A DNA stretch of 64,000 nt from Branchiostoma floridae. Taxonomy: Eukaryota; Chordata; Leptocardii; Amphioxiformes; Branchiostomatidae. A program made the translations under genes and the position numbers. The stretch covers positions 14,418,266-14,482,265 of the forward strand of contig NC_049987.1 in assembly GCF_000003815.2 (NCBI RefSeq), in the 5' to 3' direction. How positions within the stretch are numbered: position 1 is the first letter of the stretch; each line of letters opens with the position of its first letter. The notes beneath the pieces are model-generated. The model was not told the DNA's origin. It worked only from the letters and a program-made list of their open reading frames with translations, and made no database searches. Shown here piece by piece: positions 6,401-63,800 of the stretch.

Positions 6401-9400
6401 ACTTTTGGTTCTTGTTATTTTTGATCCATGGATTGACTTGAAACTCAAGATTTATGAATGGAAGACAACCCCATAGCATCCCGATAGGGATGTCTGTACA
6501 GTTTGATCATGATCACTACCAATATCGGCAATTCTGCCAGATTGCCATCCTTACACGGTATATACAAATGTAGAAATGGAATGAAGTATTCTATCATTTG
6601 TCATTAAAAAAAGGCTGACGGATTATTTAGGTAAGATTTTCTAAAAGTTAAAGCAAACTGGAATTTTGTCTCTGTAATATGTGATGCTTCTTAATAAATG
6701 CAATTTTCATCCACACAGGTTGCCTCATATGACTTCCTGATGCCAGTACACATCAACGCCATGGATGCACCCAGCCCCACCCCCAGCTCCTTCCCCCCCA
6801 CCCCTGCCCCCTCCGTCCAACACATCATCCCACCCCGCATCATCGAGGTTTCCATAGCGACACCTCGCAGGCGTATCCTAGCAACAGCCTTGAGGCAGCC
6901 ACTACAAGTGTCAAACTTGAACCTGGAGTTTTACCTGCCACCTGGGTTCATGGAGCTGGGGATAGCTTCTGATGTGGGACAGAGAGGGGTGAGTGGAGAA
7001 CAAACAGACACTGTTAACCTTTAGAAAGCTACTTTAACAAGAAGCATTTGCATTATGCTTAAGGTTAAGAACTCCTCAAGAAACTTGTTTACAAATTAAA
7101 ATGCTTTCAAATTCATAATCTTTCCAGGTGCATTTTATGTTGCTTTGCTTGCTAGTTGGGAGTGTCTTATGTAGACCTCATTTAAAGCCTAATCTAAAGA
7201 AATCATAATCATAATTGACAAAATTGTGTCGTGTTGTTGTTGTGACTAAAAACACATGTACATGCTTCTGTTGTACCCTAGTTGACAAGTAACGTTCTTC
7301 TGACTAATGTAATGATATAACATTTAGTTAATTGAATAGATTTTCATCATAGAACTAATCATATCAAGAAAAGACGATTGCGCCTCCTTGCTTTTATAAG
7401 ATGCTTTGCTTTAACTGTTGCGTCCTTTCCTGTATGCAATTTTTGTCAATTGCTATCCAATTTGACTTTAATAATTGAAATTCACCCACTAATTTGCTCT
7501 AATTGACATGTGTGTTTTGCTGTTTGACCTTGTGTGACCTCTGCATCCCTCCCTGCTTGCTTCCAGTCCAACAGTGCTGCTTCCCAGGTCCAGAACCTAG
7601 ATCAGGTTAGATGGCTTTCAGAGAGGTGTAGGGACAGATATGGTGTAGTGTAGACTAGGACAGTCAAAGTAGACATATACATGTACTACTAGACTAATAG
7701 CTTGTATACTTACTACATGGTACATTTTTAACACTGTACATCGGACGTATGAAGGATCATGACAAAATGATACTCTTTATAAAGAAATCATGATCCTTCC
7801 CTGTCCATTTGTTAAACTACCACCATTGGACATCTGGTGACCAACCCTCGCTTGTAGTCAACAACACAACCAGTCAGGTGCAGATACATGTATGGTGCTA
7901 TTTTCTTTACTGTCGGAAGAAGGTTAGCTTCCTTATTCTGGCAAAAGTCAATCCAACAGTTATTCCTTTTCAGTATTGTACCATTTTCTTAACTGCAATT
8001 ATTTCTTTTACACCTTTAGTACACAGTCCTAGTGAACAACAGCCCCTCTCCCATCACCTGGGGCCTGGATCTGGAAGCCTGTAAGTCGGAGGCCCTAGAA
8101 GAGGGGACCTTCAAGTTCCTGGGGCCGGGAGGAGTACCCTTTGTGAACTACCGGGAGAAAGGGATAGAGGGCACTCTTCAGCCTGGAGAGACATATGAGC
8201 TGGGGGTGCTGTTCTGTCCAAGTAAGAACAAATCATTTAACTTTGTCTGATAAAAAGTATGCAGACGTTTATATAGCATATGTTCTGGACTTCTACAAAG
8301 TGTACCCTTCTGTTGCGTCTACAGTCTTACAGAATGTACAATTCTACAGAAGCTTCAGTTTTACAGATTTCAAAGTTCTACGGTACATGTGGTTCTATAG
8401 AATTCACAGTTCTATAGAATTGCCAATTCTACAAAATCTACAGTTCTAAGGAATCTACTTTTCTGTGGAATCTACAGTTCTATAGAATCTACATTTCTAC
8501 AGAGTCTACATGTCTACAGAATCTACTGTTCTACAGTTTTTCAGAATCTACAGTTCTATAGAATCTACAGTTCTATAGAATCTACAGTTCTACAGATTGC
8601 TAATGATCAAACCTGAATATGTGTACAGTGCAAGAGTCTGTAACAGCATTTACAGTTTACATGTAGTCTGTATAAAGTCTTTGAATAGACATAAAATAAC
8701 ATTTTGTCATTTTCTCTCTACCCAGACTGCCCTGGCCAGTTCTATGCCAAGGTCCCCATTATCCTAAATGGCAAGCGGGAGCTCCCTTACCAGTACCTGC
8801 AGGTCAGGGGTAACATGAGGTCACCCAAAGTGACCTTTGACCCCTTACAGGTGGTGCTGATGCCAGTACCCCTGGCTACAGAAGTGTCAGCAGAGTTCAG
8901 CATTGTAGCGTCGGCCTACACCAAGTGAGTCGATAAAGCTTTATCTTGTATATGAGAATTTGCTTGTGTATTTTCTTGAAAACTTCAGAACAAGAAGACT
9001 TGATGAGAGTTAAGCAAATCACCATTAATAATTGTTCAATGTTGAAGACTGCTTAAGAGTTATTGTAGCAAAGGTTGTACGTTAATTTTTTGCAGTATTT
9101 TTACAAATGACACCAAAGCCTGTACATACATAACATCGTATCGCAAAACTTTCCTAAAATTCAAGCCAGGCCAATACTTCATCAGTTCGAATTACAAATT
9201 ATACCATTTTTCAAATCATTTCTACAGAAGGTGTCTTGTACAGTTGATTCAATGTACTATTCATAAGAAAGTTACAATACAAGGCAATCTACTATTTTTA
9301 CAGCTAGCTACTATACTATGGCATAATTTGACTGACCAATACATGTGTATAATCATCCAAACCTAGGCCCTCCTCCATCAAAGTGGAAATCCCTGACATT

Positions 9401-27400: not shown

Positions 27401-30400
27401 TGTGTGAGGGTAAGAGGTTGATGTGCAGTGATATTGCAGATGATGTTTTTCAATGATTTTTCTCTTCCTAACTCTGCATGCCTCTACCTGTCCCTACACA
27501 CCTTCAGGTTATGAGCAGGGGAAAGGTATGAATGGTGATAGGATAGTCAGGTGCTGCTGTTTATGCATATATTTGCATATCATTGGAAAAATTCACCTGT
27601 TTACTTCCATTTTTAAACAATTTTCATTCATTGTTTAGTTTCCTCTTTTGTATTGCATGAAACATCCATTAGCCTAGCTTCGAAACAGCATGGTTGAATT
27701 GATAGTGCTTTGTATACTGTTGAAGCAGGTTTGTCTCACTGTCTCTGCCTTCTGTTTCTCTAATGTTTTTTTTTCTTTTAACAATGTCACTTTGTGGCAA
27801 TTTTCACGCCAGTTTGTCATCTCCATGCACTTGTTTTCTGAAGTCAGAGCTATTGAAAGTTTTGTTGGTGTTCAACATGAGTGTTTCAACTTCCAAACAT
27901 TGTTGGATCAATTTGTTCTCAGAAAAGAAATAGGTCTATCTTGTAAAATGTTGACACAATGTCTAGAGAAAATAGAGATAGATGCCTAGATCTGTAAAAT
28001 TAATGTAGCGTCAAGATCAGAAGAAACAGTGGTCATTCTGGCTGGCCGGAGTGATGGCCAGACATTAATTAAATCAGATCATAAATCAGTATCCAACATT
28101 AATTCACTTATCGTCATTTTTTCTACAGACCAAAAGCAGTTCCTCCACAAGATCAGTGAATCAGTCATCAAGCAGTCCATCACAACAGAGTCCGCCTTCT
28201 GTCTCCTCCTCAAACACCCTCACAACATCCACCTGGCGCCCAGGGCGACCCTTGACCTCCCCCTGACCTTTGCCCCCAACCGTATGGAGCTGCACGAGGC
28301 GGTGTGTGTGGTGTCCGTGAGGAGGGAGGACGGACAGAGCTGGAAGTTTGGGGCACAGGCCATGAAGATCGAGACACTGGACGGGGAAAGTGGAGAAAGG
28401 TAAGCAAAAACTATGTTTAGAAAACAAGTTTCTGGCATGTCGTTTTCTTATAGTTAAATGATTATGCAAATAAGGTGTTGATTGACATTACAAATGTCCA
28501 TACATCCCTTCCTAATATCAGTCTTTGATGAATGTGACAAGCAAAGAAAATACTGCGAAAACACAAATACACACACAGAAAACAATACCCCCTTATAAAC
28601 TAGTAGGCTCTTTCATTGACCCTATGACCTGGAGTGTATGTCAGTTGTCAAAAACAGTGACATGCTCTGGCAAATGACTTTTACTTTCTGTCGCTTTGTG
28701 GTGAATGTGACTAGCATATGGGAAATACTGAAACACAGAGAGACACCGAAACAATACTAACTGTTTCTTGTAGCTAGTAATCTGTAAAAAGCCTTGTTGC
28801 AAAGTAGGACAGTCGTTAACTATCAAGAATCAATGGAAATAAAATTAATCCAAACTGTTTTCTCACCAGGAGTGCGAGTAGGACCAGCAGCGGTGGTCTG
28901 CGTGACGTGCGCTGGATTTACCCCATTCACGGTGTCCCCGAGTCCCACCCTGTGAAGGACGCAGCGAGGGCGGCCACCGTGGAGTGTCAGGCCAGGAACA
29001 GGGTGGAGGAGAGGTTAGAGGTCACGCTGATGGGCGCTGCTCCCAGCTCGGCTGGAGGGTATCCCAACCCGATGAAGACCAGGGCCATCACTCCCATAGA
29101 TGCACAACGACCAAGTACAGATGGGGTCATTGTTGGAGAGGGTACGTATCTCCCGCTCCTTACCATTTTCTTACAGTCTATTCATTTTAGATGCATCCTT
29201 CTTTCTCTTGTACTATTTCCAACATATTTGTTTATTTGTTTATGATCCTATTTTTATGTTTAAGTGTTTGTTAATGTTTATGGTATTTTGTTAATATCAT
29301 GTTATAATGTTAGAAGACAATTTCAGATAGTCGAAGCTAAGAATTTTTATAGATATTAGTGCTTGCTTACATGTACTTTGCCACAAGAGTCAGTTTCCAA
29401 AGAATGTATAGAACTGACTTTGCACCAAGTATTACTCTACATTTTGTAAATCTCAAAGCATTTTGGAAGGCTTTATTCTTTTGTTTTTACAGTGCCTTTC
29501 TGCCACAAACATTTGTTTGTGCTACAGTATTATTTTGACTGCAACCTGTAGACACGTAAACCGTATACAACCAGCTCACTTCGAGCTCTTCGAACTAACA
29601 TCAAACCCACACCTGATGTTCGACTATCCATCAAAGAATGTGGCATAGACAGATTTCGCCGAGCAAGAGGATGCAGAGGGGGGAGAAACTTAACCCGCAA
29701 AGTCGTCATGCCTGCGACTGCCCCCACCTCACTACCCGCAATGTATGAAACAGAGAACAGGAATAATCGAACAGATCACACAGTTACAAGTACTGTTAGA
29801 TCCCCACTAAACAGACAAAGAGACAGAAAACTCGACTTATGGTACACCAACATACAAGGTCTGAGAGCTAAAAGGGACTACCTAAACGTACGGCTTGCAA
29901 ACGCCTACCCAAAGCCAGATATCATCATGATCACTGAGTCTAAGCTAGATGCGTCAATACCAGACGACAGCCCTGATATCAGCATTGAAGGTTATTCAAT
30001 AGAACGGAGAGACCGAAACACTGGAAAGGATTGGGGTGGCTGCCTAATCTACTATAAAGGTGGAATTGGCCTACACAGAAGACAAGACTTGGAACCTTCT
30101 GAGCACGAAATGATGTTATTCACCATCAAGCTGGACTCGGGCATTCTCCTGATGTCCCTTTTATACAGACCTCCTGGACAGAGAGTTGCAGACTGCGCAC
30201 CCATAGACTGGTATATAGAAAACCTAGACTCTCTGCGAACTAAAACAAAGGCCATTGGGACACTGCTGGCCGGGGATTATAATGCCCACCATAAGGAGTG
30301 GCTACTTAGTAAAAAGACCGACCCTCCTGGCAGGCACACGCTCACACTCTGTACCACTCACGGACTATCTCAGTTGGTAAACGGTACTACCCACCGCAAA

Positions 30401-33400
30401 GGAAACAGACTGGACCTGATTATGTGTGATACACCCAGCCTTTACACAGAAGTTCAAATTAGCCCTGAAATAGGGAAGTCAGACCACTACTTGTTAAGCA
30501 CATCAATAACCTGCTCTCCGGTTAGGAGAAAACTTCCCCAAGGAAGATCTGGATATACCAGAAGGCTGACTGGGACGCTCTCCGGGTAGAACTTGCACAA
30601 GCAAACTGGGACTCCATGCTAGACCAAGATAACCCAGAGCTCTCATGCACAAGGGTTACAACATGTATACAACAGGCCATGGAACATCACATCCCAACAA
30701 AAACGCTACGAACCTTCATAGGTAAACCAGAATGGTACAACGAGGCATGTGAAAAGGCACTACAGAAGAAACTAAAAACATGGCGACAGTACAAAGCGAA
30801 CAATACCCCTGAAACTCGAAACAGATACAACCAGTCTAGAAATGGCTACACATATGTTACCAGAAAAGCAATCAATGCCCACAAAAAGAGAATCAAAGAA
30901 AAAATGACCACTGACCTAAAAAAGGGAAGCAAGAGCTGGTGGTGGACCGCTAAGAGACTGATGGGTCAAGGAGGTAAATGTGACATCCCACTCCTGAGCT
31001 CCGAAAACCAAACATACATTCATCCCGAGGAGAAAGCGGAATGCTTTGCAAGCATTTTTGCTGAGAAATCCACCATTCCCCAAGATGAGAACGACAAGGA
31101 CGTCCCACAGGTAGAGAGCAAAACTGCTTCCAGACTGACAAGAATAGTATTTTGGCCAGAGCAAGTACAAAACGTTTTAGCTAAGCTCGACATCAACAAG
31201 GCCACTGGCCCGGACTCAATACCTGCCAGGGTCTTGAAACATGCTGCAACCGAGCTATCTAAACCCCTAGCAAAGCTCTTTCAGCTCTTGCTAGACAAAC
31301 ACTATATGCCGAAGCAGTGGAAAGTTGCCCACGTGATACCAGTTCATAAAAAGAACAACAAACACGACCCTAGCAACTACCGCCCAATATCACTTCTCAG
31401 CATTATAAGCAAAGTGATGGAATCAATCATAAACAAAGCCCTGTGGAAACACATCTCCGAGAACCATCTCATAAGTGACAAGCAGTTCGGATTCAGGGCT
31501 GGGCACTCCACAGCAGATGCACTGACGTACGTCATTCAACACCTGCATGACGCCAAGGACAAAAGACAGGAAAGCAGACTGATATGCCTGGACATAAGCA
31601 GAGCGTTCGACCGCGTATGGCACAAGGGGTTGATTGCCAAGCTGAAAGCCATCGGGGTCGACGGGAACGTGCTAAACTGGATTGAGAACTACCTTGCAGA
31701 CAGAGAACTGAAAGCCATTATCAGCGGAAAAACATCCACCGCCAGGGTCATTAACGCGGGAGTCCCCCAAGGCTCAATCCTTGGCCCCTTGCTCTTCATC
31801 ATTTATATCAATGATTTGACAGAAAAGCTGGAAAACACATCGATGCTGTATGCCGATGACTCATCAATCATGAGCATTATAAAAGAAAGACGTGAAAGAG
31901 CTAGGGCAGCCCAGTCACTGAACTCAGACCTGGAAGAAATACAAAATTGGGCAAACAGCTGGAACGTCATATTCGGAGCCACAAAGTGTAAGTGCATGAC
32001 AATTAGCAACTTGAAGGACGCAGTAGGCAACCACCCAGAACTCAGCTTCATGGACACTACACTCGCAGAGGTAGATGAAGTTGATCTCTTAGGCGCAACA
32101 ATCCGAAAAGACCTGACATGGAATCACCACATAAAGAAGATGGCCGCGGACGCAGGAAAACGCCTGGGTCTACTGCGAAGAGCCGCCCCCTACCTCAACC
32201 CTCAACAGAGAGCCATCATATACAAGAGTATGGTGCGATCCAGCATGGAATATGCCTCAACCGTCTGGATGGGAGCTTGCTCCACCTCACTCGACCTTCT
32301 CAACGCCATCCAAAGAAGGGCCACCAAGATCATAGACCTCCCCGAAACTGACCTGTACAAATATCAGATTCAGCCCCTGGAACAACGCAGAAACGTAGGG
32401 GCTCTCACCCTCCTGCACCGCATGTACAACCACGACGCACCTGCACCACTCAACAGTCTACTTCCTGAACCCTATACACATCGACGTGAAACCCGCCTGT
32501 CTACATCTCAACACTGCAACGCCTTGGAGCCTGTGAAATCAGCTACCACATCGCACCGCCGTACCTTCCTCCCGGCCACAACAAAACTCTGGAACTTACT
32601 GCCTCAGCACATAGTGACACTTAGGGACAAGTATCAACAACCACTTCAGCGACCTACGTCAGCGCCCTTAAGGACAGCTGCTAATGCTGAAGATCGGAGT
32701 ATGACTACATAGATAAAAAAAAAAAAAAGAACCATTTCCACTCCTGCTGCAAAATTGAAACCTAGCAAAAATAAACTTATTCGCTGTACTGTGCACAAAC
32801 TAAACAAGTTGTATCTGTTTCCCCTAGGCAACACTGTGGCAGAAGAGTTCTCGTATGAGATAGAGTATGACTCGGAGGATGCGCAGAGCCTGCTGGAACA
32901 CTCCCTGGGCCTGAGTCTGGTCAGGAAACAGCGAGACAGGGTCAGCGGGGTCGTGGTGCTCGTCTTTAACCTCATCTTTGCTCCTGCAAAGCCTCTCAGG
33001 TAGGACAGAAAATACTCTCATTTCTTCCTTTTTTCTTTCATTTATTTGTCCCATCATTCCTTTGTCTATCATTTATAAGTGTCCTTTACTTTGTCAACTT
33101 TTCTATTCATTTTTCAATCTTGGCTCTGACTTTTGAATTACCCATGTCGGACACGACAATCTCAACCAGAGGTCAAGCCCATTTTGTGCAAAATGATCAG
33201 TATTGTACAAAATGATACGTACCACTTTCATTGCTTTAGCTGTAGCCAACAGGGTCCTGTCCATGGTACTGAACAGTAGACAAATAAACACTATCCTGGA
33301 ATTAATTTTCAAAAAAGACCTGAGAACTGCTTTTAATCCAGTCTAAGATTACTTCATTCATTCATTTAATCCATCCATTCCTTCATTCAGTGAATTGTAT

Positions 33401-48800: not shown

Positions 48801-51800
48801 GTGAATATGTGTAGAAAAATTTTTAATAGAAAAAAAAGCTGTTTGTTTGGACTTGGTTTATTTACCTTTCTAATCATTATAGTCAGCAACAAACACGGCG
48901 TACTTATGCATAATAAGATAAGCAAAAAATCCGGGCATCTTAGGGCAGGGGGCATCTTATGGCGGCCCCCCGTTATATACCACCCTGATGAAACTATTTA
49001 CAAATGTTGTTTTTGTTGTAATTCCTGTCCAGGCTGGTAGATGGCATTGCTGAAGCTTCTCACTCCTCCAACTCTGACGTGTGCTACACCAGTGTGAGCT
49101 GCATTGCTGGGCTGCTCCGCTCCGTGGAGCTGATCAGTCAGGGGCAGGCCTTGACAGAAACACAGATAGAGGACATCAACAGGCAGATGGAGGAAGCTGA
49201 GGAGGAGGGGAGGGGGGTCACCGAGGGAGACAAGGGATTGGTCAATGGGGATGTGGGAGTGGAGTCAAAGTTCAAAGGTGAAGAGGAAGATACAAAGGTC
49301 AAAGGTGAAGAAGAATCCATGGTTGAGACACCTGACACAAAAAATGATGAAGAATCTAAAAATGACAAAAGTGTGGTAGAAGAAGAGTCACAGGCGAGCA
49401 AAGAAAATGTAGACAAAATAGAAGAACAGAAATCTGAAGATGTCCCTGGATCTGGAGAAGAAGAGAAAAATGAAGGAGATGGCTCTGAAGATGTGCAGGA
49501 GGTTGGAGAAAAGGAAAGAGAGGAAAAGCAGGAGGGAAGAGAACCTGGGGATGGTGCCAGTGGGGAGGATGATGGGAAGGCAGATCAGTCCACTTCAGAG
49601 AAAGAGGGGGATGCAGAGGGACAACAACAAGACACAGCGGAAGGTGGGACGAACAGCACACCTGCCACTGATGAAGAGAAAGTAGAGGAGAGAAAGACTT
49701 CCATTCAAAAGCCACCAGCAAGGTTTGTTAAAATTAGAATATATTGATTTTTAGACTAGAAGGCTCATCTTCATCATAGCATGTGAAATTGATAAAGTAG
49801 AACTACATATTGTATATTATTCAAATACAATTCAATCTCTACAACTGGATAAAAAACGGATATTTACTTCCGGACGTTTCGAGTGACATCCATCACTCTT
49901 CTTCAGCAAAAGCAGAATGAACTAGTCAGAACAATTCAATACCAGTACAGCTAACTAGAAAAACTGGTTTAACCACTAAATCGTTAGGATCATATGCAAA
50001 AGGTTACACAAATGTAAATCATGTTAGGATAGTTCCTATGGTCAGACAATACCATAGGAAAAAACTATTGTCCTTTGTGTTGCAAGGCGGGGTCCCATGT
50101 ACTGGAAAGTTCTATGCGCAGTCCTCCCTTCCGGTTTAAGGTGGGGTTGTAGATCCGCTCATAGATGGCCTCCTTGACACCCCGTTCGTATCACCGTGGT
50201 TCGCGGTCAAGAATGTCTGTAGTATCCAGTCTGAATGAATGTCCTTGGTGTAGCTGAGTGTGGTGGTAGATGGCAGAAGGATATCCACTTGCTGTAGCCC
50301 TGAAGTGTTGTTTGTACCTTGCCTTCAGTGGTTGACTGGTTTCTCCAATGTAGGTGTCGTTGCACTGTGGACCTTCACACTTAAGTATTGAATTGTTCTG
50401 ACTAGTTCATTCTGCTTTTGCTGAAGAAGAGTGATGGATGTCACTCGAAACGTCCGGAAGTAAATATCCGTTTTTTATCCAGTTGTAGAGATTGAATTGT
50501 ATTTGAATATTGCTTACCTGGATGTCTAACCTTCATAAACGTACATATTGTATATTCTTCTCAACCACCTTTTGTTGCCAAAAATGATGAAGATTACTAG
50601 TATTTTGATGTTTCTTGATGAAGTTCAAGTTGATACAATGCTAGTTCACCTTTATCCATGGAGCCCAGGTAACTCATATCTTTTTTTTTTAACGTAAAAT
50701 TTGGGTAGAGTTTTGGGAATATCAAGTCATGGATGGTGGTTTCAAAATGCAATATTTTGAATTAAGAATAATTTGTACGCTGTTTTTGAAAGCAACTGAT
50801 GAAAGTGAACTAGCATTAAGTATGCTTTTCTTGCTCTGCAGTTTTGAGATGGAACGCCAGGTGGCACTGCAGAGAGCTGAGATGGAGCGCATTGCCCATC
50901 AGAACAAGGAGCTGGAGAGGCAGGGTGCCCGTGACTTTGTGGACTGTCTGATTGGAGTTCTTCCCTCAGTCCTCCCGCTCATAGAGCCAGAGGGAGTGGA
51001 CGACGCCTTGCAGACCTTTGCCTCACGATTTTGTGCAGGTTTGTCTGTCGGATTGATACAAGAAATCAAACAACTCATTTTTTTTTTCAATTTCTTATCG
51101 TATTCATTATAGTCAATTTCTTGCTAATCCTGTCAAATACCCACAGGTTCACATAAAGTGACAGTAATGCATTTGGAAGGAAGTTAAAGACCAGAAGTAA
51201 GATAACCTACTCTGGGACCTTTCTGGAACATTTGACCTAACTTCCTGTCACTACTGTATTCAAATGATCATGGACACAGAAGCAAGCAAACAGACAAACG
51301 GAATCCAAAAAACGACATCTGTACGTTGCTGTTAAAGTTCTTTGTCCTTCAAAAGCTGAACTAACTATCACACTCACTCACTCACTATTCAGTTAAGCAT
51401 CTGCTGTTCCCCGTCTTGCGAGAGTTGGACATTGCTGGATGTCATTCAGGTCTGATAGCTGATCTCCAGATGCCTCTGTCAAGGGGGTAATGGCTTTTGC
51501 AGGTTCAGACTGCAGATATCTTCCTTGACATTGTCTGGTACCCATCTCCGCTTGGGGCGACCATATCAGTTCTGGCCCTCTACAGACAAGGTCATACATA
51601 TGTCAAAGAACTTGAGGACTTGGTTTCTTTTTTCCTGTCATTAGGAGTGATGGAGAAACACAAGCAGGGCCAGGGCTCTGCCAACCTGCCTGTGTTGAAT
51701 GCTGATGGGGTGTATGTGGCCACGTTCTCTGCACTGCTGCTGAACCTGAAGCTTGTCAGGATGGGACATTACAACGGACAGGACTGTAGACTACCCATGA

Positions 51801-54800
51801 CACAGGTATTGTGGAATAGATGGACAGATAAATGGAGGAAGTGGAGGAAGATGGAGGGAGGGAAGTAGGATGAAACTATTCTAGACTAGAACTGGTTGCC
51901 ACCAATAGCCACTGGTAGCTCATTGAGTAGCTTTAATTCAAACAATATTGCAGCGTCATGTGTAACAGTTAGGTGTAACACTAACAGTTTGTTCAGTGAA
52001 ATATAACAAGCTGCTGTCATGTGCCTGAGAAACTGGACTGCTACTTCTAAGGGCAATATACTGGCTACGCAGATTAGATGGATTGTACTAAAAACTACAA
52101 ATGTGCTGTCAATTCTGAAACACTTATCTGACGTAAAAATTTATGTCCCAAGACCAGACTTTACTGTTGAAATAGAAATGGTCTTGCAGGTGCCTTTTTT
52201 TCTGAAAATTGAACATTATATGACGGAATTCTTGTTACCTTTCCATCTGTGCAGAAACAGTTTATCGAGGATGTCCATGACAGCGGAGTGCTGGTGTACC
52301 TGTCCTCCACATGGCTGGGAGAGCTGTATAAGATGATCGTCACTGTTAACATCCTGGGGGCAGCAGGCTACCTGCCTGCCTCACCGCAGAGTAACCAGGC
52401 TCTTATAACCATGTTAACAGGTAACCCGGCTCTTATAACCATGTTAACAGGTAACCAGGCTCTTATAACCATGTTAACAGGTAACCAGGCTCTTATAACC
52501 ATGTTAACAGGTAACCAGGCTCTTATAACCATGTTAACAGGTAACCAGGCTCTTATAACCATGTTACCAGGTAGGGATAATTCCTCACCAACCAGGCTCT
52601 TATAACCATGTTAACAGGTAGGGATAATTCCTTACCGACCAGGCTCTTATAACCATGTTAACAGGTAGTGCCAAGTCATTGCATCTAGTATCTTATTAGC
52701 ATTGAAAGTTGAAATGTTTCTGTAAAAATCCAGGTCATAGTTTTGCCTGTGCATGCACAGCAAGATGCATTGTGTTAAAACAATTTTTGAATGGCTCATG
52801 CCCCCCCAAAAATCAAAGTTAAAGAATATTGACCTTCTGTTTCTAAGATTATGTTTTTTTCCTATTTCAGACATTGATGGAATGGGGAACAGACACATCG
52901 GGGGACAGATGATGCACGATGCCACTGTCAGTCTTGTGCTTCCTGTGCAGAAGGATGCTGGGAATGAAACGGCAGTTGCTGCAGGTACAGTAGACACTTT
53001 CCACAAAAATTGCTCAATTGTCGTTTGCACATTTATGAAAATTTTTTCCTTCATAATCTACTTTAAAACTTGATTGTGCAGATTCTTGTAAAAAAAGACT
53101 ACACTTTTGATTTGTTTTGCAGGTTTGGCACTAGTCAATAATATCCTCCTGGCTGGTTGTGTCATAGGTTAGAATCTATCCCATAATATTCTCCTGACTG
53201 TTGTGTTCCAGGTCAGAAGCTAGTCCATAATATCCTCCTGACCTGCTGGGACAGCATGGTGGATGTCATGGCCGTCCCTCTCAGTGCCAAGAACTCAGCC
53301 GGGATCAGCAACATCGCCCTCATCCTGGGGACGGAGGGAGCAAAAGAGCAGAACCTGAAGGACAGAGATGCCATCTGTATGAGCCTGGATGGGCTGAGGA
53401 AGGCTGCACGACTCAGTTGCACCCTGGGTAGGTTTAGGTTTCATAGAGGGAGACTGTGTGTTAGCTGTGCAATGTAAGTCTTTTTAACCTTTAGCACCCT
53501 GAAGTAGCCTTTTGGCACCTGAATCTGTATTGGTTATGGAGTTAGGTAGCAGGGAGAAGGTTAAACAAATCTGACCAAATGTTAAGCAATGTTAATAAGC
53601 AAGACTATGGGCTACTTTAGGGTTCCTGTCCTAGGTGCTGATTTTTTTGTTACTGTTTTTGTAGCTTTCTTGTTCTTGGGTCCAATTGAATTTTGTTTTA
53701 ATCTTATCAATCAATTTCTCCCAGGTTACTCCAATGTTTCTGACATGAGTGAAGTTAGAGGTCTGTGTTATTTGTTTGTGTTAAAAAGGAGTGTGGCTAA
53801 CATGGTTGGTCATGTAACTTTGGTGATTAACAGTGTGTGGTAAAATTTTTGCAGTTCATAACCCTAATGAATTGCTTCATGAATTCCCATCTTTCTTATC
53901 CCATTGATCTTAACTTACAGATTGGTATGACTACTTTTTCCTTCCAATACACTAACACAATGGGCAGTGAGGTACACAAACCACTGGTGCATTGAATCCT
54001 TATAAACAATAGATAGCATTTATCCTTCTTACAACAATGGATTGGACTGTCATCTTCAAGAGTAAATGCACTAGTACACCTAACATAAAAGCTTAGTTGC
54101 ACAGAAACAGTTTTTGGGTGTACAACACAAATCAAAGTAGAATTTTGGAAAAACCTAATTATTACAAATCTTCATACAGTCATGTACACCATAGGTTTCA
54201 AGACTGCTTTTCTTAAATGTCAATATGCTGTATGATAGTGTACAAAAGTACTTTCATACACACAGTTAATAACCATAACCATGTCGTGCTTTTGGGAAAG
54301 GCACTTTACACAACCTTCCTCACTTCACCCAGGTGTAAAAATGGGTATGGGACTTCCTGTCTGTACTTAGTATTTGGCTCTATTAAATAGAATAAGTTGA
54401 GTGCAATACCACATTGTTCTCGTATGTCAAAAAAAGTATTACGAGCCCTAATTCAGGTATCTTTCTCTTATCTCATTCCCCAGGTGTCCAGGAAAGGTGT
54501 GGTGCAGTGTTTGCCCAGTTGGCCAACGCCTCGTGTATATCACTGGAACCCAGCAAGCCTCAGGTATCCCCCGGGGACAAGAAGGGTCTGAAGGCCAAGA
54601 TGAACAAGCCACAGCCCCTCCGCCTGCACGCGGCTCACGTACTGAGCATGGACGCACTGCTCAACACTGGGCTGGAGATGGGCAGTCACTCTGCAGAGTG
54701 CTGGAAACATGTCTTTAGGTAAGGTAAACATAGATTCTAGGGACTATTGAGATGGGCAGTCACTCCCCAGAGTGCTGGAAACATGTCTTTAGGCAGGCAA

Positions 54801-57800
54801 TATGGTAGCACAAAAACACTTTTGCATGGTGTCATAATTTGTGAAGGGTCCTTGTAGAAGGTACGTAACTTTACAAAGTGGCTTGTTTCTTTTTAGAAAA
54901 AGATGCGTAAGGATGGAGGATGACTATGAATAAGCAGATATTTGTCAAACAGATTTCTGTTTGTTTTCACCAAATGAGTGTCAAAACTGATTAAAATCTT
55001 GCATCACATCGGCCCAAAGACTAAGTTTACCTATATTAAGCTTTTGAAACTAAGAGAGTGTAACTATACAGATTTAATGGACTGGACATACGACGGAGGA
55101 ACCCAGTTTCAATTTGTTGTTGCGCCTTTTTTGCCTAAACAAGATCTTCCCAACATGTACATGACTTGTACATCTTCCCCCCCCCCCCCCCCCCTACCAG
55201 GTGTTGTGCCTACGTGTCCCACCTAGAACACTCCCACTTCAGTGGAGGGGACAACCAGGCCAGCCTTCCCAAGGTGCAACACCAGAAGGAGCTTCCACAG
55301 GACATGTCAATGACCTATGATGACCTCTCAGGTAAGGGGTCAAGGCCAACATTGAAGCAAAGCTAGTTTTTTGTGCTAAAAATTCAATGCAGAGTCCAAT
55401 GACAGTTTAGTATAGCCAGCACTGTTGCTTTAGAAGAATTCTACTATATTGTAGGGTATGAAGGCCCATGATGAACTGACTACCATATCTGCTATGTTAA
55501 CTGTAAATGCGTTTGTGCTACAAGAAAATCAATGTGGCTAGTATTCTGTGTGTAGTGTTGCTTGTACATGTACTTGAATGTGGTTTGTCTGCTTTAACGT
55601 TTGTTGTCTGCAAACCCCTCCCTGGTGCTGGACATGCTTATAACTGTATGGTAAGTCTGTGGTACATGGTGATCACTGTTCATTATGCATGAGATGTGCA
55701 ACCTCGAGCTCATGGTAGAAAGCACTTGGAACATATGTAGGATACATGCATGCCATATGATTGAAAACAAATTGAAAATTAGCTGCCAGAGGGCCTTAGA
55801 TTTGATATCTTCTTCCTGATCAACCAAAGTTTTGCGTATAGTTACTGAAAAAGAAATTGTAAAAGTCTCACTGACAATCTTTTACTTATGGTGAATGCAG
55901 GAAAAACATGCAACCTCCTCAGTATAGTCATAGCAAATGGAAATTCCAGACTTGCTGTGATGCAGAACCCACAATGCATGTTGTTTTGGAACAGATCAAC
56001 AGTGCAATGAGCTACCAACAGTTTCTTTGTTCTGCATGTTCAAAGCTTGTTTCTTGTCATACAAAAATAAAGATCTTGTGCACGACAAGTTTCCAACTAC
56101 CACTTTGAAGAGTAGGAGGTTTCTAATGTGACATGCCAAAATGGAAGTCTTTAACTCTTGACCTTTAAACCTAGGTGGCCCTGAAGCCATGTATATGCCA
56201 GCAGCCAATCCGGTGATCCCCAGTATCAACATCCATGAGATGATCACAGAGGGGAGGAAGGAGACAGGACTGGAGATGTCAGCTAAGGGAGGCGGTGTGC
56301 TCAGCTCTGCTAATGCTGCCAAGGCTGTGTACAGACTGTCAGCTGATGTGGACAGGTCAGTAGTTCATCTAAGTACAATTAAGGGACTCCAATTAATAGA
56401 AAACACCTATGCAAGTCATATTTCATTTCAATTTACAGTATTTAAATATGCAAGAAATAAACCTCTATTTTGTAAATTAAGCTTTGATGCATCCTTGTTT
56501 TTATCTTTGCTACTTGATTTCATGATCAGGTACTTACAAATTATATTTGTAGAAGCGCACAAATTTCATGTAAAATAATTTGTAGCCTTTGACCTGTTTG
56601 TACGACTTGACATGTTTAACCTTTGCTCTTTGACCCCAGGTTGCAGATACAAGCCTTAATCTACCTGCATGCCCTGGTGTCTTTAAGTCTAACCTTTGCC
56701 CTTTGACTCCAGAGTGTTTGAGGACGCAGCTACTAGCCTGAATCTGCATGTTTCTAAGTCTAACCTTCACCCTTTGCCCCCAGGTTGTTTGAGGAGGCAG
56801 CTACCAGCCTGAACCTGCATGCCCTGGTGGGTTTCCTGACAGAGCTGAGACAGGTGTCAGCTGACCAGCTGTTCAGTACTGCCCCTGAGGTCATTGACCC
56901 TGTCATGATGCCCAAACCCACAGGTAGTTATCCTATGTGTAAAACATGTGTGTAACTTGTGTAGCCAGGTCAGGTTATGATTATGAATTCATATAATGAG
57001 ACTTCTGAATGAAGAAAGTATTGCAAGTTAGGATGTGTATGTATTTATACTTGAGTTGGGATGACAAGCCATTATGTAGACAAAGTAATAATGAAAATAG
57101 TTTCGCTCAGATCAACTGAAAGTACCAAGATATGCACATGAATAGCTATCACATACTCAAAAAAACTGAACAAAAAAACCCTGCACCAGCATTTTTAGCT
57201 CCCTCTACTCTATAGTCATTCTCGAGGTATCTTAAAGAGAAATAACCTTTGCAGGAAATGGCAGCCAGTTCAGCACCTACCTGCACCTGAGTCACCTGGG
57301 TGAGGTCATGCTGCGCTGTTCCCGCAGCTTCCAGCGACCACTGCTGCACATCATGCGTGCCTGGGGCATCGTAGCACCTCATTTAGTGGAGGTAGGCAGG
57401 ATTCAATTGTTTTTTTTTGTTTTTTTTTTACAAGTAAAGAATTGTCAATCTCACTGTCACTTTGTTGCAACTGTTGTTTTGGGGCATTGAAATATAATGA
57501 AGTAGAAGTATATCATGCTGACTTCAGCATAAAGGGTTGTCTTGTTACAAAAAGTCTATTACATACAGCAGGCCAATAAGATAGTTAAGTTTCACAAAAG
57601 CATTGTTATCTACTATTTATCAAAATAGAAGTGTGTTTGAAGAAGTGTCTGTCCTTGGTGCTGAATCAGGGGTTACACAATTCCTGAGATCAGAAAACAA
57701 AGCAGTTAGGATAGCTATCAACACAGATCTTAGTGGAACTTTTGCTTGCAAATGACTTGCATTTCAATACCCTGCAGACTTCCTTTTGCACAATATTGTA

Positions 57801-60800
57801 GCACATTTTTACAACAGGAGTGTACTGTTCCATTGAAGTTTCAATGATTTTGAAAAAAAAAGGTCTCACCAAGGGTTTTTGCAGGCTGCCTGCCACAAGG
57901 ATCGCCATGTCTCCAAGAGGGCGGTTACGTGTATCCATGACATTATGATCGAGCTGCTGAACAACCGAGAAGAGAAACCGCACTTCAACTTTAACGAGGC
58001 GCTCTTCAAACCGTTTGAGAATCTCCTGTGTCTGGAGCTGTGTGATAATGATGTACAGGACCAGGTAAGGACTGATGCCTGGTCAGTGGGGGAGGGGGGC
58101 ATCTATGTTGGAAGCTGTTCATACTAGTGTGTATGATTATGATAGGTAGCACCTATCACACATCAGCCAAGGAGTCTGCAAGCTCCAACTGACATTTTGG
58201 GCAGTAATACACTTGGTGTCCTCTCAATCATCAAGCACTTTTTGGGGAACCAAACCCAGTTTGGGTAGATTTTGTGGCAAAAAAAATGTGCATGACCCAC
58301 TGTTGATTTTTATATCAGGTGACTATCTTGCCATCAAATAATAACAAATTTGACTGTGTCACAGGGAAAATTGAAAAATTTAGGTGATAAAATAAATTTG
58401 TCTTCTTTAAAGAAATATTTCAGAAAGGTTATTTTTTAATACTATACAGGGAAATATCTTACTACATGTTATATACACCTGGAGACAAATTAATTGTATA
58501 TCAAAAGGGCAACATGCATATACTTGAATATGACAAAAGGTTCTGTCAGAATGATTCCAGACTTTTCATTGTTGAAATTTGTAACTTCTATTTTCTGATT
58601 TTTGTTGAGCACTTTGTTATATGGCATTATTTTATGGCGTTTTTATGTTTTGTTTTCTTCTCATTTTTGACAGCAATTGGGGCTATGGTGTCTTCTTCAA
58701 TGGACTCTTTCTTTTCAATCCCGAAGTATTTTTTTCTCTTCTGTTTTGGGTTTCCTTAACAAACTAACCCCTCTTTCTTCATCTCTAGCTCTGAACTGCA
58801 TTTCACAGTTTTGTTGCATAACCTATTTCTTTGGACACCATCATTCTGGTACAGTAACAATAGAAATCTTATATGTTGTGATAGCATTTTTTTTTAAAGA
58901 AAACTGTTGTGGATCACTCCGCTAATTTGATCTTATATCATAAAGCTCTTGTTCTAAATCTAACATACTTACATTGTACATAGCTTGACAATGTACATAT
59001 TTATGTTGTCAAAAAAGACTTGAAAGAATGTTTTGCTTGTAACTCAAAAATTTGTGAAATTTAGCATCGCAGTATGAAAAGCACTTGTGCATGCAATTTT
59101 TCACTACTTGAAGATTAGAGATATTTGAATGACAATTTGCAATACACAGTGCTCTCGTGAAATGATTTAGAACAGATTTACAGGATTTTGCTGATCTTTA
59201 GTTTACTTTTTTCTAGGTTGTGAGCTCCATAGCCGAGCTGGTTGAGGCCAGCACCACGAGTATTAAGTCAGGCTGGAGACCACTGTTTGGGGCTCTGAGG
59301 GTGGTCAAGGTTTACAAACCAAAGGTATAAACAGTTTTTACTATGCTGTAGATAATGCATTGATTTTTAGATATTGAATATTTTTTTCAAAGGTATTGTT
59401 TTTGAAGATGATACTCTAATCTTTTATTTAAATGATGATGACCAGTTTTCTTCATCATTGACAAAACATGTTGAATGATGTATATAGGTGGACTTTAATC
59501 ATTTCTCTAATAATTTGTTTCAATCCATATAATAAGCATGACTATTCTAATACTGCGGCATACAGTGGAAAAAGAAAAGGAGAATGAAAGCACTGGTTGG
59601 ATTGGACTGAGAGTTGGGGTCAGGGTTATTATACATAATGATTGTAATTTATTGTCAAGGTTGGGGATATAGAGGAAAATTGACAAGGAAATATGTATTA
59701 TCAGAAGAGATAGCTTAAGTGTTATTTTCTATTAATAAAAAGACATTGGATGCTATAGTCTACTGCAAGATTTGGGTCTACTGAGACTTCCATTTAAACT
59801 GTAGAATAGATATGGAAGTAAATGTTACTACAGTATTGAATTGTTTGGGTTGTCAGCCAACAGATAGATGTTCAGCTGTGTTACATAATGAATATCCGAA
59901 AACACAGAAATCAATAGTACAGAAGGATGTAGCTTGTAACTGACAACACAGCACTGCTTATAGTCCACAGAGAATTGTCAGAGATCTTTTCAGAATATTG
60001 TATCTAGTGAAATGCTGTCAGTCATGAGAAGAAGTTGCTACAATGGAAGGGTAATGTGTGCTATTGTTTGAATGTAATGTATTATAATACGACAGTCCAT
60101 GTAGTGTACATGTACATTTTGCATAGTGACATACAAGATTCCCTTTGTAATGAAGTAGCCTTTTTGTTATGATAAGAGGACCAAATTGTTTCACTTATGA
60201 CTTCTGACTAGGCCACGAGAAGAAGTTAATATTTCTTACCAGTATACTGAATACAGTTGGGTAGTACATGTATATAACTGTAACGTTAACTGTAAAGACA
60301 GAGACTGAATTAGATAGTTTATGGAACGATACCTATCTTCAGTCTTTTGTATTGAAGTATGAATAATCTGTACATGTAAATACATTTTAAGTTTATGTCA
60401 TAAACCTGACTCTTGTCATTTCTATGATTAATGTTACATCAGGGAGGAGATTATTTCATCAGTGAGGAGCGCCACGAGCAGCCGACCGCGCCAGTGTTTG
60501 ACGTGTTCGAGGCCTTCCTCGGTACGGAGAATGTCCACGTGTTTGCTAACGCTGCCATGGACTGTATCCTGTGTCTGCTCAAGTTCATCCGTGGGCCTCA
60601 TGGTAAGGAGAACAATGAAGAATTAGTGTTTGCAGGCAAAACCTACTTGTAGAATTTTTTCCCTGGACAATTATGTTGTACTGAGGTCAACTAAAACTCA
60701 AAATGGCTGCCTCAGCAAAAAGTGTCTTGCAGACAACTAATACATGTATTATGTACATTGCAGTCATACAGATATAATAACAGCATTGATTGTCCTTTGA

Positions 60801-63800
60801 TTACCATATTTGTGTAGAAAGCACTGTATTTTTTAATCTGTATATTCTGCAAAGGCCCTTCAGAGTAATGTCTGTAATGTATCACACTTTCACAGTCTTC
60901 TAAAACATGTTGGGATACTTGAAACATTTTCCTCACTGACAGGTTTTACGAGCAGAACATCCAACCATTGCAAAAGGTTAGACTCAGACAAACTTTCCTT
61001 CTTCTCCCCACAGGAGTCCGAGAGGGTGATTCGGACTCAGATGATGACGATGACACTGACAGTGACTTTGAGCAGGTGGAGGCCCCCCCACCCCCAGACC
61101 AGGAGGAGAGTAGGGAGCGTGGGGACCTGTGTCTGCCTGCCCTGGAGTACCTGCACAGGTGTCACAAGACTCTGGCCTCCATGTACACCATGCCTTCATG
61201 TCCTGTCTTCAAGGTGAGAGGTCGATCAGGGTTTGAAGGTCGAAAGATAGGTCAAAGGTCGAAGGTTATCCTTACTTTGTTTAAGTCTATTAGTGCAAGT
61301 ATTAGTATTGGTAGCATCTATTGATAACATATTGGCCTCCATGTACATACAGAATAGAACACAGTGTATTCCGTATCACCTGGGGTACCAGACTGACTGT
61401 GGGTAGGATGGCTCAACAGCTGAAGGTCAAAGAGTGATTGATCCCATAGGAGGTCTTGGATTGAGGGTGATATGCAATACACTGTGTTGTATCTTATTTA
61501 TGTCATACACTTCCAAGAAAACACATGTATCAATGCAGCATTTGCCAGTTGACAAAAGTTGGTGTCCTCAGAAAAAAAATTGTAACAATGGCAATTCCAA
61601 CATCTGAATCCAATATTGAATTTTTGACCGCAGCATATTTGGCACACGAGGCATGCATTGGAATTATTCTGTGGAAGCCTGTGTGATAACAGTAGAACCC
61701 CATGTGATATTCCAAGTTATCACCTGGTCCGGCTATTGTATATCAAAGTAGATGTCATAGTTCTTAGGCCCCCTAACCACTAGACAGCATGCTATTGAAC
61801 TGAAAAATAGTCATCAATAGCATCCTAAGATAATCAGTGTAATTGATTTTTTTCCCCCAGGGTGCCAATCACATCAACATCAACAATGTACTGAAGATAG
61901 ACACCAGGAGGGAAGCCGTAGATTCAGCAGCCAGGAAGAGGTCTACTTCAAGGTCAGGAGGGTCAGAGTATGACAGTGATGATGAGGAAGAAGAAGATGA
62001 AGATGATGGGAGGGAGAGGAAGACGTGCAACTATCCTGTCTTCTCTATGGATGACAACACAGGTAGTGTCTTAGATGTATCTCATTCTCGACCATCTTCT
62101 TGCTGCTTTAGCTTGTAAGCAATTGAAAATCCTACAAAACAAAAGCACCAAGAAAACACCACCGCTGCGAAGATGGCATATATAGTTTGGGGGATAGGAT
62201 TTACATGTATATGCATAGTTGTAGTCTGCAGTCTGGAACAAAGTTGCTAGGTGGCGCAATGTAGTTATCCTAAAGTATAGTTATCCTAAGAGACTTAAAG
62301 AGCACCCTCTACCTGTGCAGGTGTTATCCGGGTGTGGTTCCTGCTCCTTGAAGGGCTGACAGGTTCTGTCACTACCTGCCCTAAGACATACCAGCCTCAG
62401 ACCCTGGAGCTGCTCTTCAAACTCCTTAGATCTGTTGCAGAAGTGCCAGGTAAGAATGCTCACCTGTTTGCACACCTGTTCTATATGTGTGTAGGAACAA
62501 GCAGAAATGGATGCATCAGTGCTTGAGTTGAGTTCATTATTAGTGAAAGCTAGTTAAATCTTTTGGCTATGTAGCATGCTGGGGCATACTATTTTTATGA
62601 ACAGCAGTAGGTCATTTACCTTGCTCAATGTCTATCTCTCCTCAAATATAGATGAATAACTTGGAATGACTCTTTGAAAAGACTAAGTCTAGTATCTACT
62701 ATGATTAGTGTATCAACCAAGACTCAGAACACCATTGGGTGGAATATTAATTGAACCCCTGACCCTTTGATCCAGAAGCTGGGTTTTTAGCCACATGACC
62801 AGGGATCAATTGTATCTTTACACAATGTTTGACAGCTAAATGAATGCATTATGCCAAAGTCCACACTTATACTAGCTATACAATAAAGATACGTGCTGTG
62901 GTAGTACTAGAGTACCAATTGAGAAATAAGTATGTTGAAGGTAACTTTCTCACCACACTCATGTTTTCCCTACTATAGGCCCCCAGTTTGCAGTGTTCGC
63001 CGTGACCCACCTCCTCCTCCCAATGCTACAATCCTGGGTGCGGCGCAGCCACCACGTCCCGGACTTCTGGGACACGTCCAAGGCAAACTTCAAACACGCG
63101 TGCGGCCTGTCCACGGACCTGGTGGTGGAGCACACCAACCTGTTTGCCGCTCGAGACGAGGCCTGGGTGTCCACCGACGTGCCTGTGATGATCCGACAGC
63201 TGCTCAGTCTACTGGTGGAGTGTATAGGACAGCCTGTGGAGGCTATCTCTAGACTAGGATGTGCCTGTCTTAGGTAAGTTTGTTTTGAAGATTCGTAAAG
63301 ATTTAAGTTTTGTCCTTGGTGCTGAAGGTGTTTTCATGTTCTTTGTGCTGACTGAGTTTCCCTGTCCCTGGTACTGACAGTGTTTCCTTGTCCCTGGTGC
63401 TGACTATGTTTCACTGTCCTTGGTGCTGAATATTTCTCTTTTCCTGACTGTCTATCCCTGTCCCTGGTGCTGACTATTTTTCCCTGTCCCTGGTGCTGAC
63501 TGTGTTTCCATGTCCCTGGTGTTGACTGTGTTTCCCTGTCCCTGGTGCTGACTATGTTTATCTGTCCCTGGTGCTGACTGTGTTTCCCTGTCCCTGACGT
63601 TAAAATACATTTACTTGTAGTTAATCAGAATCCCAAGTACAACATTCAAACAATACCCTTGTATTTTCTTTGCATACTCCAGACATCTACTGCTGAGTGC
63701 TGGTCCATCCTTTACGGAGGAGATGTGGTCGGTGGCGTGTGAGGGACTGCTCCACGCCGTCAACGCCAGTCTGAAGAGCGTGAAGCTCCTGATGGCGTGC

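What the first reader, a model, noticed from the sequence alone, without database searches (positions are those of the whole stretch)
52391..52664. Tandem array of splice donors: exon end and 5' splice site multiplied eight times
Each of the six 30-bp units contains the last 29-30 nt of exon 17 plus a GT donor context, and 30 is a multiple of three. Any of donors 1-6 therefore joins exon 18 in frame, and the protein would carry 1 to 6 copies of the NQALITMLTG decapeptide inside the Sec7-like region. The later 47-bp units shift the frame and lead to TAA at 52603-52605, so they form an out-of-frame tail. Donors 6 and 7 have G at +5 and should outcompete donors 1-5, which would favour the six-copy form. 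I know of no described gene with a minisatellite that spans an exon-intron border and multiplies its own 5' splice site in frame. It could act as a variable-length protein module generated both by splicing and by copy-number change.
Basis: partly seen in the sequence, partly recalled or inferred. Interest (0 to 1): 0.88.

Follow-up and report, generated by a model that had tools for sequence, protein, structure and literature searches.

The report
Amphioxus "mirage" repeat at exon end
A short DNA repeat at the end of one exon of a lancelet gene copies the exon edge and its splice signal several times; lancelet genes are already known to carry such repeats, so this is a good example of a known oddity, with the open question of which copy the cell uses.

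Summary
The array is real. Eight copies of a 28-bp exon-end core lie at 52393-52664, each followed by GT; the first six are 30 bp apart, the last two 47 bp apart. Donors 1-6 join exon 18 in frame; donors 7 and 8 read TAA at 52603-52605. The host gene looks like BIG3/ARFGEF3.

Minisatellite-like tandem duplications of exon-intron borders are a described amphioxus phenomenon, "mirages". A human IFI6 minisatellite provides alternative splice donors. Human tandem repeats at exon-intron borders that alter splicing are catalogued.

The same gene has three more border duplications. In a small survey, exon borders met local duplications about as often as flanking DNA (4 of 136 against 57 of 1768 windows).

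One correction matters. Only donors 6-8 carry intron-type sequence; donors 1-5 take +4 to +6 from the exon. The array is best read as an in-frame exonic repeat followed by a short true border duplication. Donor 7 is identical to donor 6 but gives a stop, so a six-copy product is not assured. No transcript data were available.

The parts
52255..52420 (+). Exon 17 in its shortest form (ends at donor 1): end of a Sec7-like domain plus one NQALITMLT copy
   Evidence: Frame and acceptor; weak Sec7 match
52391..52570 (+). Six 30-bp units (GTAACC...AACAG), in frame; donors 1-6 lie after 52420, 52450, 52480, 52510, 52540, 52570
   Evidence: TRF; unit scan; translations
52571..52664 (+). Two 47-bp steps: intron-type GTAGGGATAATTCC(T)(C/T)ACC plus a copy of the exon-end core; donors 7 (after 52617) and 8 (after 52664); TAA at 52603-52605
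   Evidence: TRF (array to 52668)
52871..52984 (+). Exon 18, the acceptor partner (DIDGMGNRH...)
53117..53250 (+). Second border duplication: 5' end of exon 19 with its acceptor, about three diverged copies, the last being the real exon start at 53212
   Evidence: TRF 53131-53242, period 44, 2.5 copies, 79% matches; copies printed; not detected by the stricter ungapped test
54675..54793 (+). Third border duplication: 3' end of the exon ending at 54718 copied once into the intron at spacing 74; the donor GT reads GC in the intronic copy
56612..56826 (+). Fourth border duplication: acceptor and 5' end of the exon starting at 56784, two copies by TRF (56684-56821) and a more diverged third seen by eye

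Best explanation
It is an amphioxus mirage: a recent minisatellite expansion at an exon-intron border, in two steps. In one, a 47-bp piece covering the exon end plus 19 bp of intron start was tandemly copied, which leaves spare exon ends and donors in the intron (donors 7 and 8). In the other, a 30-bp piece that is effectively all exon was copied; its break lies at a GTA shared by the exon-internal GTAACC and the splice site GTAGGG. That lengthens the exon by whole decapeptides and makes weaker donors (CAG|GTAACC) at each joint. Most likely the transcript is cut mainly at one or two donors among 1-6, with donor 6 the best-scoring in-frame one, so that the protein carries a neutral, variable NQALITMLTG repeat in the linker after its Sec7-like domain. 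Use of donor 7 or 8 would give a premature stop and probable decay of that mRNA. Shown: array, frames, relative donor scores, other border duplications in the gene. Inferred: order of events, splice choice, neutrality, variation between individuals.
For: Array anatomy; frames; intact BIG-family frame across 12 hand-picked exons, with the Sec7-like HDS domain at 8.9e-14; donors 6 and 7 outscore 1-5 on three matrices and in U1 pairing; three more border duplications in the same gene; clear acceptor copies at three other exons of this genome, L003, L008 and L066; the phenomenon is described for amphioxus Adh3, globins, PGBD5 and troponin C.
Against: No transcript, second haplotype or second species was examined, so use of any donor is unproven. 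Donor 7 equals donor 6 in all scores. The published mirages are reported not to disturb regular splicing, which would fit donor 1 alone as well as donor 6.
Confidence: 0.8

Rival explanations
1. Donor 1 alone is used. Units 2-8 are silent intronic copies, as in other mirages, and the protein has one NQALITMLT.
For: Published mirages are said not to disturb regular splicing. In the other border duplications of this gene the spare copies lie in the intron and have decayed.
Against: Donor 1 (U1 energy -8.0) is weaker than donors 6 and 7 (-11.2). Units 2-6 are nearly identical, so decay gives no information yet.
Confidence: 0.3
2. Several in-frame donors are used side by side, giving a ladder of isoforms with 1 to 6 decapeptides, as with the IFI6 minisatellite.
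For: All six donors are in frame. Donors 1-5 are within the range of the gene's own donors: 3 of 11 others pair less well with U1. IFI6 is a precedent for use of repeat units as donors.
Against: Donors 1-5 are identical to each other and weaker than 6 and 7; no RNA evidence.
Confidence: 0.3
3. Donors 7 or 8 win because they are nearest the intron or as strong as donor 6; much of the mRNA carries the TAA at 52603, so the array acts as a damaging or dampening allele.
For: Donor 7 has the same score as donor 6; the stop is certain if it is used. Preference for the intron-proximal of two equal donors is recalled, from no call.
Against: The reading frame of the rest of the gene is intact over the 12 exons joined, and known mirages are reported as harmless to splicing.
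Confidence: 0.15
4. Copy number is an assembly error or differs between haplotypes.
For: For PGBD5 two assemblies differ (2 against 7 copies and 3 against 6), and a globin mirage has 6 and 3 copies in two haplotypes, with one version judged misassembled in the draft.
Against: Units 2, 6, 7 and 8 carry differences that mark them, and the whole array is only about 280 bp. Only one locus is found in the genome.
Confidence: 0.2

Closest known systems
Amphioxus mirages (Adh3, BflGb6, BflGb9, PGBD5, troponin C)
   Same: Minisatellite-like tandem copies that span an exon-intron border, on either the donor or the acceptor side, with AG/GT signals in the copies (section 16 of PMC3087553; passages of PMC3902484)
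   Different: Here the first six units are in frame and open, so the copies could be coding; the reports seen say regular splicing is undisturbed
Human IFI6 (6-16, G1P3) minisatellite
   Same: A minisatellite at an exon end whose units act as alternative splice donors (passages of PMC4526556 and title of Turri 1995 in its reference list)
   Different: IFI6 use is shown in mRNA, here it is only possible. Unit length of 12 bp in IFI6 is recalled. Unrelated gene; the shared property is convergent
Internal tandem repeats of human segmental-duplication genes
   Same: About 30-bp minisatellites inside exons or at exon-intron borders that change coding length and splicing (passages of PMC2812944)
   Different: Recent human paralogues; no in-frame donor series seen in the passages
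[quoted passage not shown]
   Same: Duplication of AG|GT-bearing borders supplies spare splice signals (abstract of PMC4974935; model in PMC3087553)
   Different: No new intron is shown here; the 30-bp spacing is too short for one between neighbouring units

Membership tests
Amphioxus mirage | Tandem repeat units that span an exon-intron border | tested here: met
   47-bp units hold the exon end plus 19 bp of intron start. The 30-bp units abut the border but are effectively exonic
Amphioxus mirage | Minisatellite-size units (10-160 bp in the reports) | tested here: met
   30 and 47 bp; range
Amphioxus mirage | In a cephalochordate gene | tested here: inconclusive
Amphioxus mirage | Copy number varies between haplotypes or cells | not testable with these tools
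   One locus in one assembly
Amphioxus mirage | Regular mRNA splicing persists | not testable with these tools
   No RNA data available
IFI6-type multi-donor minisatellite | Each unit provides a usable donor sequence | tested here: met
   Eight GT donors; U1 pairing -8.0 to -11.2 against -5.7 to -11.5 for 11 other donors of the gene. Usable by score only
IFI6-type multi-donor minisatellite | Several donors are used in mRNA | not testable with these tools
   No RNA data available
BIG3/ARFGEF3 (host gene) | Divergent Sec7 domain followed by the HDS (DUF1981) domain with a long region between | tested here: inconclusive
   HDS met (8.9e-14); Sec7 weak and below its cut-off (0.011), and the genome-wide Sec7 search gave no match on contig C9; layout fits human BIG3 as described in passages of PMC4096751; no orthologue was aligned

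The most novel reading that the evidence does not exclude
An in-frame mirage in which an exonic repeat, by abutting the exon's last CAG against an exon-internal GTAACC, creates a new donor at every joint, so that splicing and copy-number change together produce a ladder of 1 to 6 decapeptides in one protein. The creation of donors by the repeat joint, not by copying the old splice site, would be a distinct route to alternative splicing.
Probability: 0.2. Interest if true: 0.55.

Novelty: new member of a known kind. Interest (0 to 1): 0.3.

Why it matters
It adds a gene with four border duplications to the list of amphioxus mirages and is a natural test of how the spliceosome chooses among a series of equal and unequal 5' splice sites 30 and 47 bases apart. 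Because five donors are identical and six are in frame, one RNA-seq experiment would show whether position alone decides. It also suggests that mirages may simply be the overlap of abundant local duplication with exon borders, since the small survey saw no excess at borders.

Tried and rejected
Rejected: that the feature is without precedent. Rejected: a dispersed element, since DNA search with 52250-52700 finds only the locus itself (that search skips simple repeats and common words). Considered: that border duplications are favoured at splice sites. In 68 exon loci, 4 of 136 border windows touch a local duplication against 57 of 1768 flank windows. The control is crude: flanks may hold other exons, and several loci overlap or come from one myosin cluster. 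In the 12 exons picked in this gene, 3 of 24 borders were touched by the strict test, and all three strict repeat clusters in that 12-kb stretch lie at borders, which leans the other way; numbers are too small to decide.

Led nowhere: the simple gene finder over-predicts (68 exons for 43000-63990), so 12 exons between 51645 and 60602 were picked by eye from its output and the open frames. The first donor matrix (39 sites) is noisy. No PDB chain matched the 116-residue stretch around the array at E up to 10. The Pfam hit of the array exon to a Tc toxin repeat (0.012, below its cut-off) is taken as chance. Of the survey hits, L060 is unclear, L074 is an intronic repeat, and L075 is an exon piece copied into the intron without the border.

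No structure was predicted and no fold search was made.

Full report
What is there. The array is real and nearly perfect. TRF gives period 30 with 6.1 copies at 52391-52573 and period 47 with 2.7 copies at 52543-52668. Eight copies of a 28-bp core run from 52393 to 52664; five are exact and three have one mismatch each, and all are followed by GT. The locus is the only match in the 513-Mb genome for 52250-52700, in a search that skips simple repeats.

Frames. I translated exon 17 ended at each of the eight donors and joined to exons 18 and 19. Donors 1 to 6 stay open, with one to six copies of the decapeptide. Donors 7 and 8 run into TAA at 52603-52605. A 30-bp unit will be in frame by chance one time in three, so being open is weak evidence of function. 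Two of the in-frame units have a base change, both altering an amino acid (unit 2, Q to P; unit 6, T to P), which is too little to judge selection.

Anatomy, a correction. The 30-bp units are GTAACC...AACAG. Unit 1 already starts inside the exon, after CGCAGA. The joint CAG|GTAACC in units 1-5 therefore has exon sequence at +4 to +6, while donors 6-8 read GTAGGG, GTAGGG and GTAGTG. The exon-internal GTA and the splice-site GTA are shared, so the exact break cannot be placed; but the 30-bp units add no unambiguous intron sequence. The 47-bp units do: 28 bp of exon end and 19 bp of intron start. I read the first part as an exonic repeat whose joints happen to look like donors, and the second part as a true border duplication.

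Donor strength. The same table retrained on the gene-finder chain gives 7.18, 9.85, 9.85 and 7.8; that chain includes array donors, so it is slightly circular. A matrix from 39 other exon ends gives 2.96, 6.49, 6.49 and -0.01, with all 39 training sites above donors 1-5. U1 pairing energies are -8.0, -11.2, -11.2 and -8.5 against -5.7 to -11.5 for 11 other donors of the gene, of which 3 pair less well than donors 1-5.

Host gene. Twelve exons from 51645 to 60602, picked by eye from an over-predicting gene finder, join in one open frame of 632 residues. Pfam finds the Sec7-like HDS domain (8.9e-14), and a Sec7 protein in the PDB aligns over residues 254-573 (1.3e-11, 8ucq_B). A shorter stretch gives a weak Sec7 match at residues 15-83 (0.011, below cut-off), with the first repeat at residue 100. 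A genome-wide Sec7 search scored 20 candidates and listed 16 matches, none on contig C9. This divergent Sec7 followed by HDS fits human BIG3 as described in passages of PMC4096751 (Sec7 592-798, DUF1981 1246-1303, a unique region between). The array would lengthen the linker just after Sec7. No orthologue was aligned.

Known phenomenon. [quoted passage not shown] It reports 6 and 3 units in two haplotypes, somatic instability at Adh3, undisturbed splicing, and a model for intron gain. Passages of PMC3902484 describe 60- and 108-bp repeats over splice sites of lancelet PGBD5, with copy number differing between assemblies, and mention troponin C. [quoted passage not shown] that paper is not held. 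Passages of PMC2812944 describe human repeats at exon-intron borders that generate alternative splicing. In the eight answered paper searches I saw no report of this particular locus.

Other border duplications. In the same gene I find an acceptor in about three copies (53131-53242 by TRF), a donor in two copies (54675-54793, the copy's GT reading GC) and an acceptor in two to three copies (56684-56821 by TRF). Their intronic copies have diverged. In 68 Pfam-selected exon loci (Sec7 8, myosin 30, kinesin 30), 4 had a local duplication touching the exon match: L003, L008 and L066 are clear acceptor copies and L060 is unclear. Of 20 further kinesin exons 2 were touched, but one is an intron repeat and the other an exon piece without the border. 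Border windows were hit 4 of 136 times and flank windows 57 of 1768 times. Within this sample there is no excess at borders. In the host gene 3 of 24 borders of the 12 exons were hit by the same strict test.

Conclusion. This is a new, tidy member of a known amphioxus class, with the in-frame multi-donor property known from IFI6. Which donor is used is open. The boldest reading not excluded is a ladder of isoforms from donors created by the repeat joints.

Noticed in passing
53117-53250: Acceptor and 5' end of exon 19 in about three diverged copies; one intronic copy has a stop in frame.
   Followed up: partly
54675-54793: Donor-side exon end copied once into the intron (43 of 45 bases alike by score), donor GT changed to GC in the copy.
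   Followed up: partly
56612-56826: Acceptor and exon start in two near copies plus one more diverged copy.
   Followed up: partly
L066:1174-1600: Kinesin exon start with its acceptor in three copies about 151-154 bp apart; the upstream copies still read as kinesin motor sequence.
   Followed up: partly
L003:1226-1560: Sec7 exon start with its acceptor in several copies separated by TTTG-rich tracts.
   Followed up: partly
63311-63596: 26-bp minisatellite with about 11 copies between two predicted exons of the same gene.
   Followed up: no
8318-8596: 17-bp tandem array of about 17 copies (TCTACAG-type units).
   Followed up: no
29552-32712: Two long overlapping reading frames that look like a non-LTR retrotransposon (endonuclease then reverse transcriptase); judged by reading only.
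   Followed up: no
L011: One myosin locus holds 99 local repeat pairs away from the exon match.
   Followed up: no
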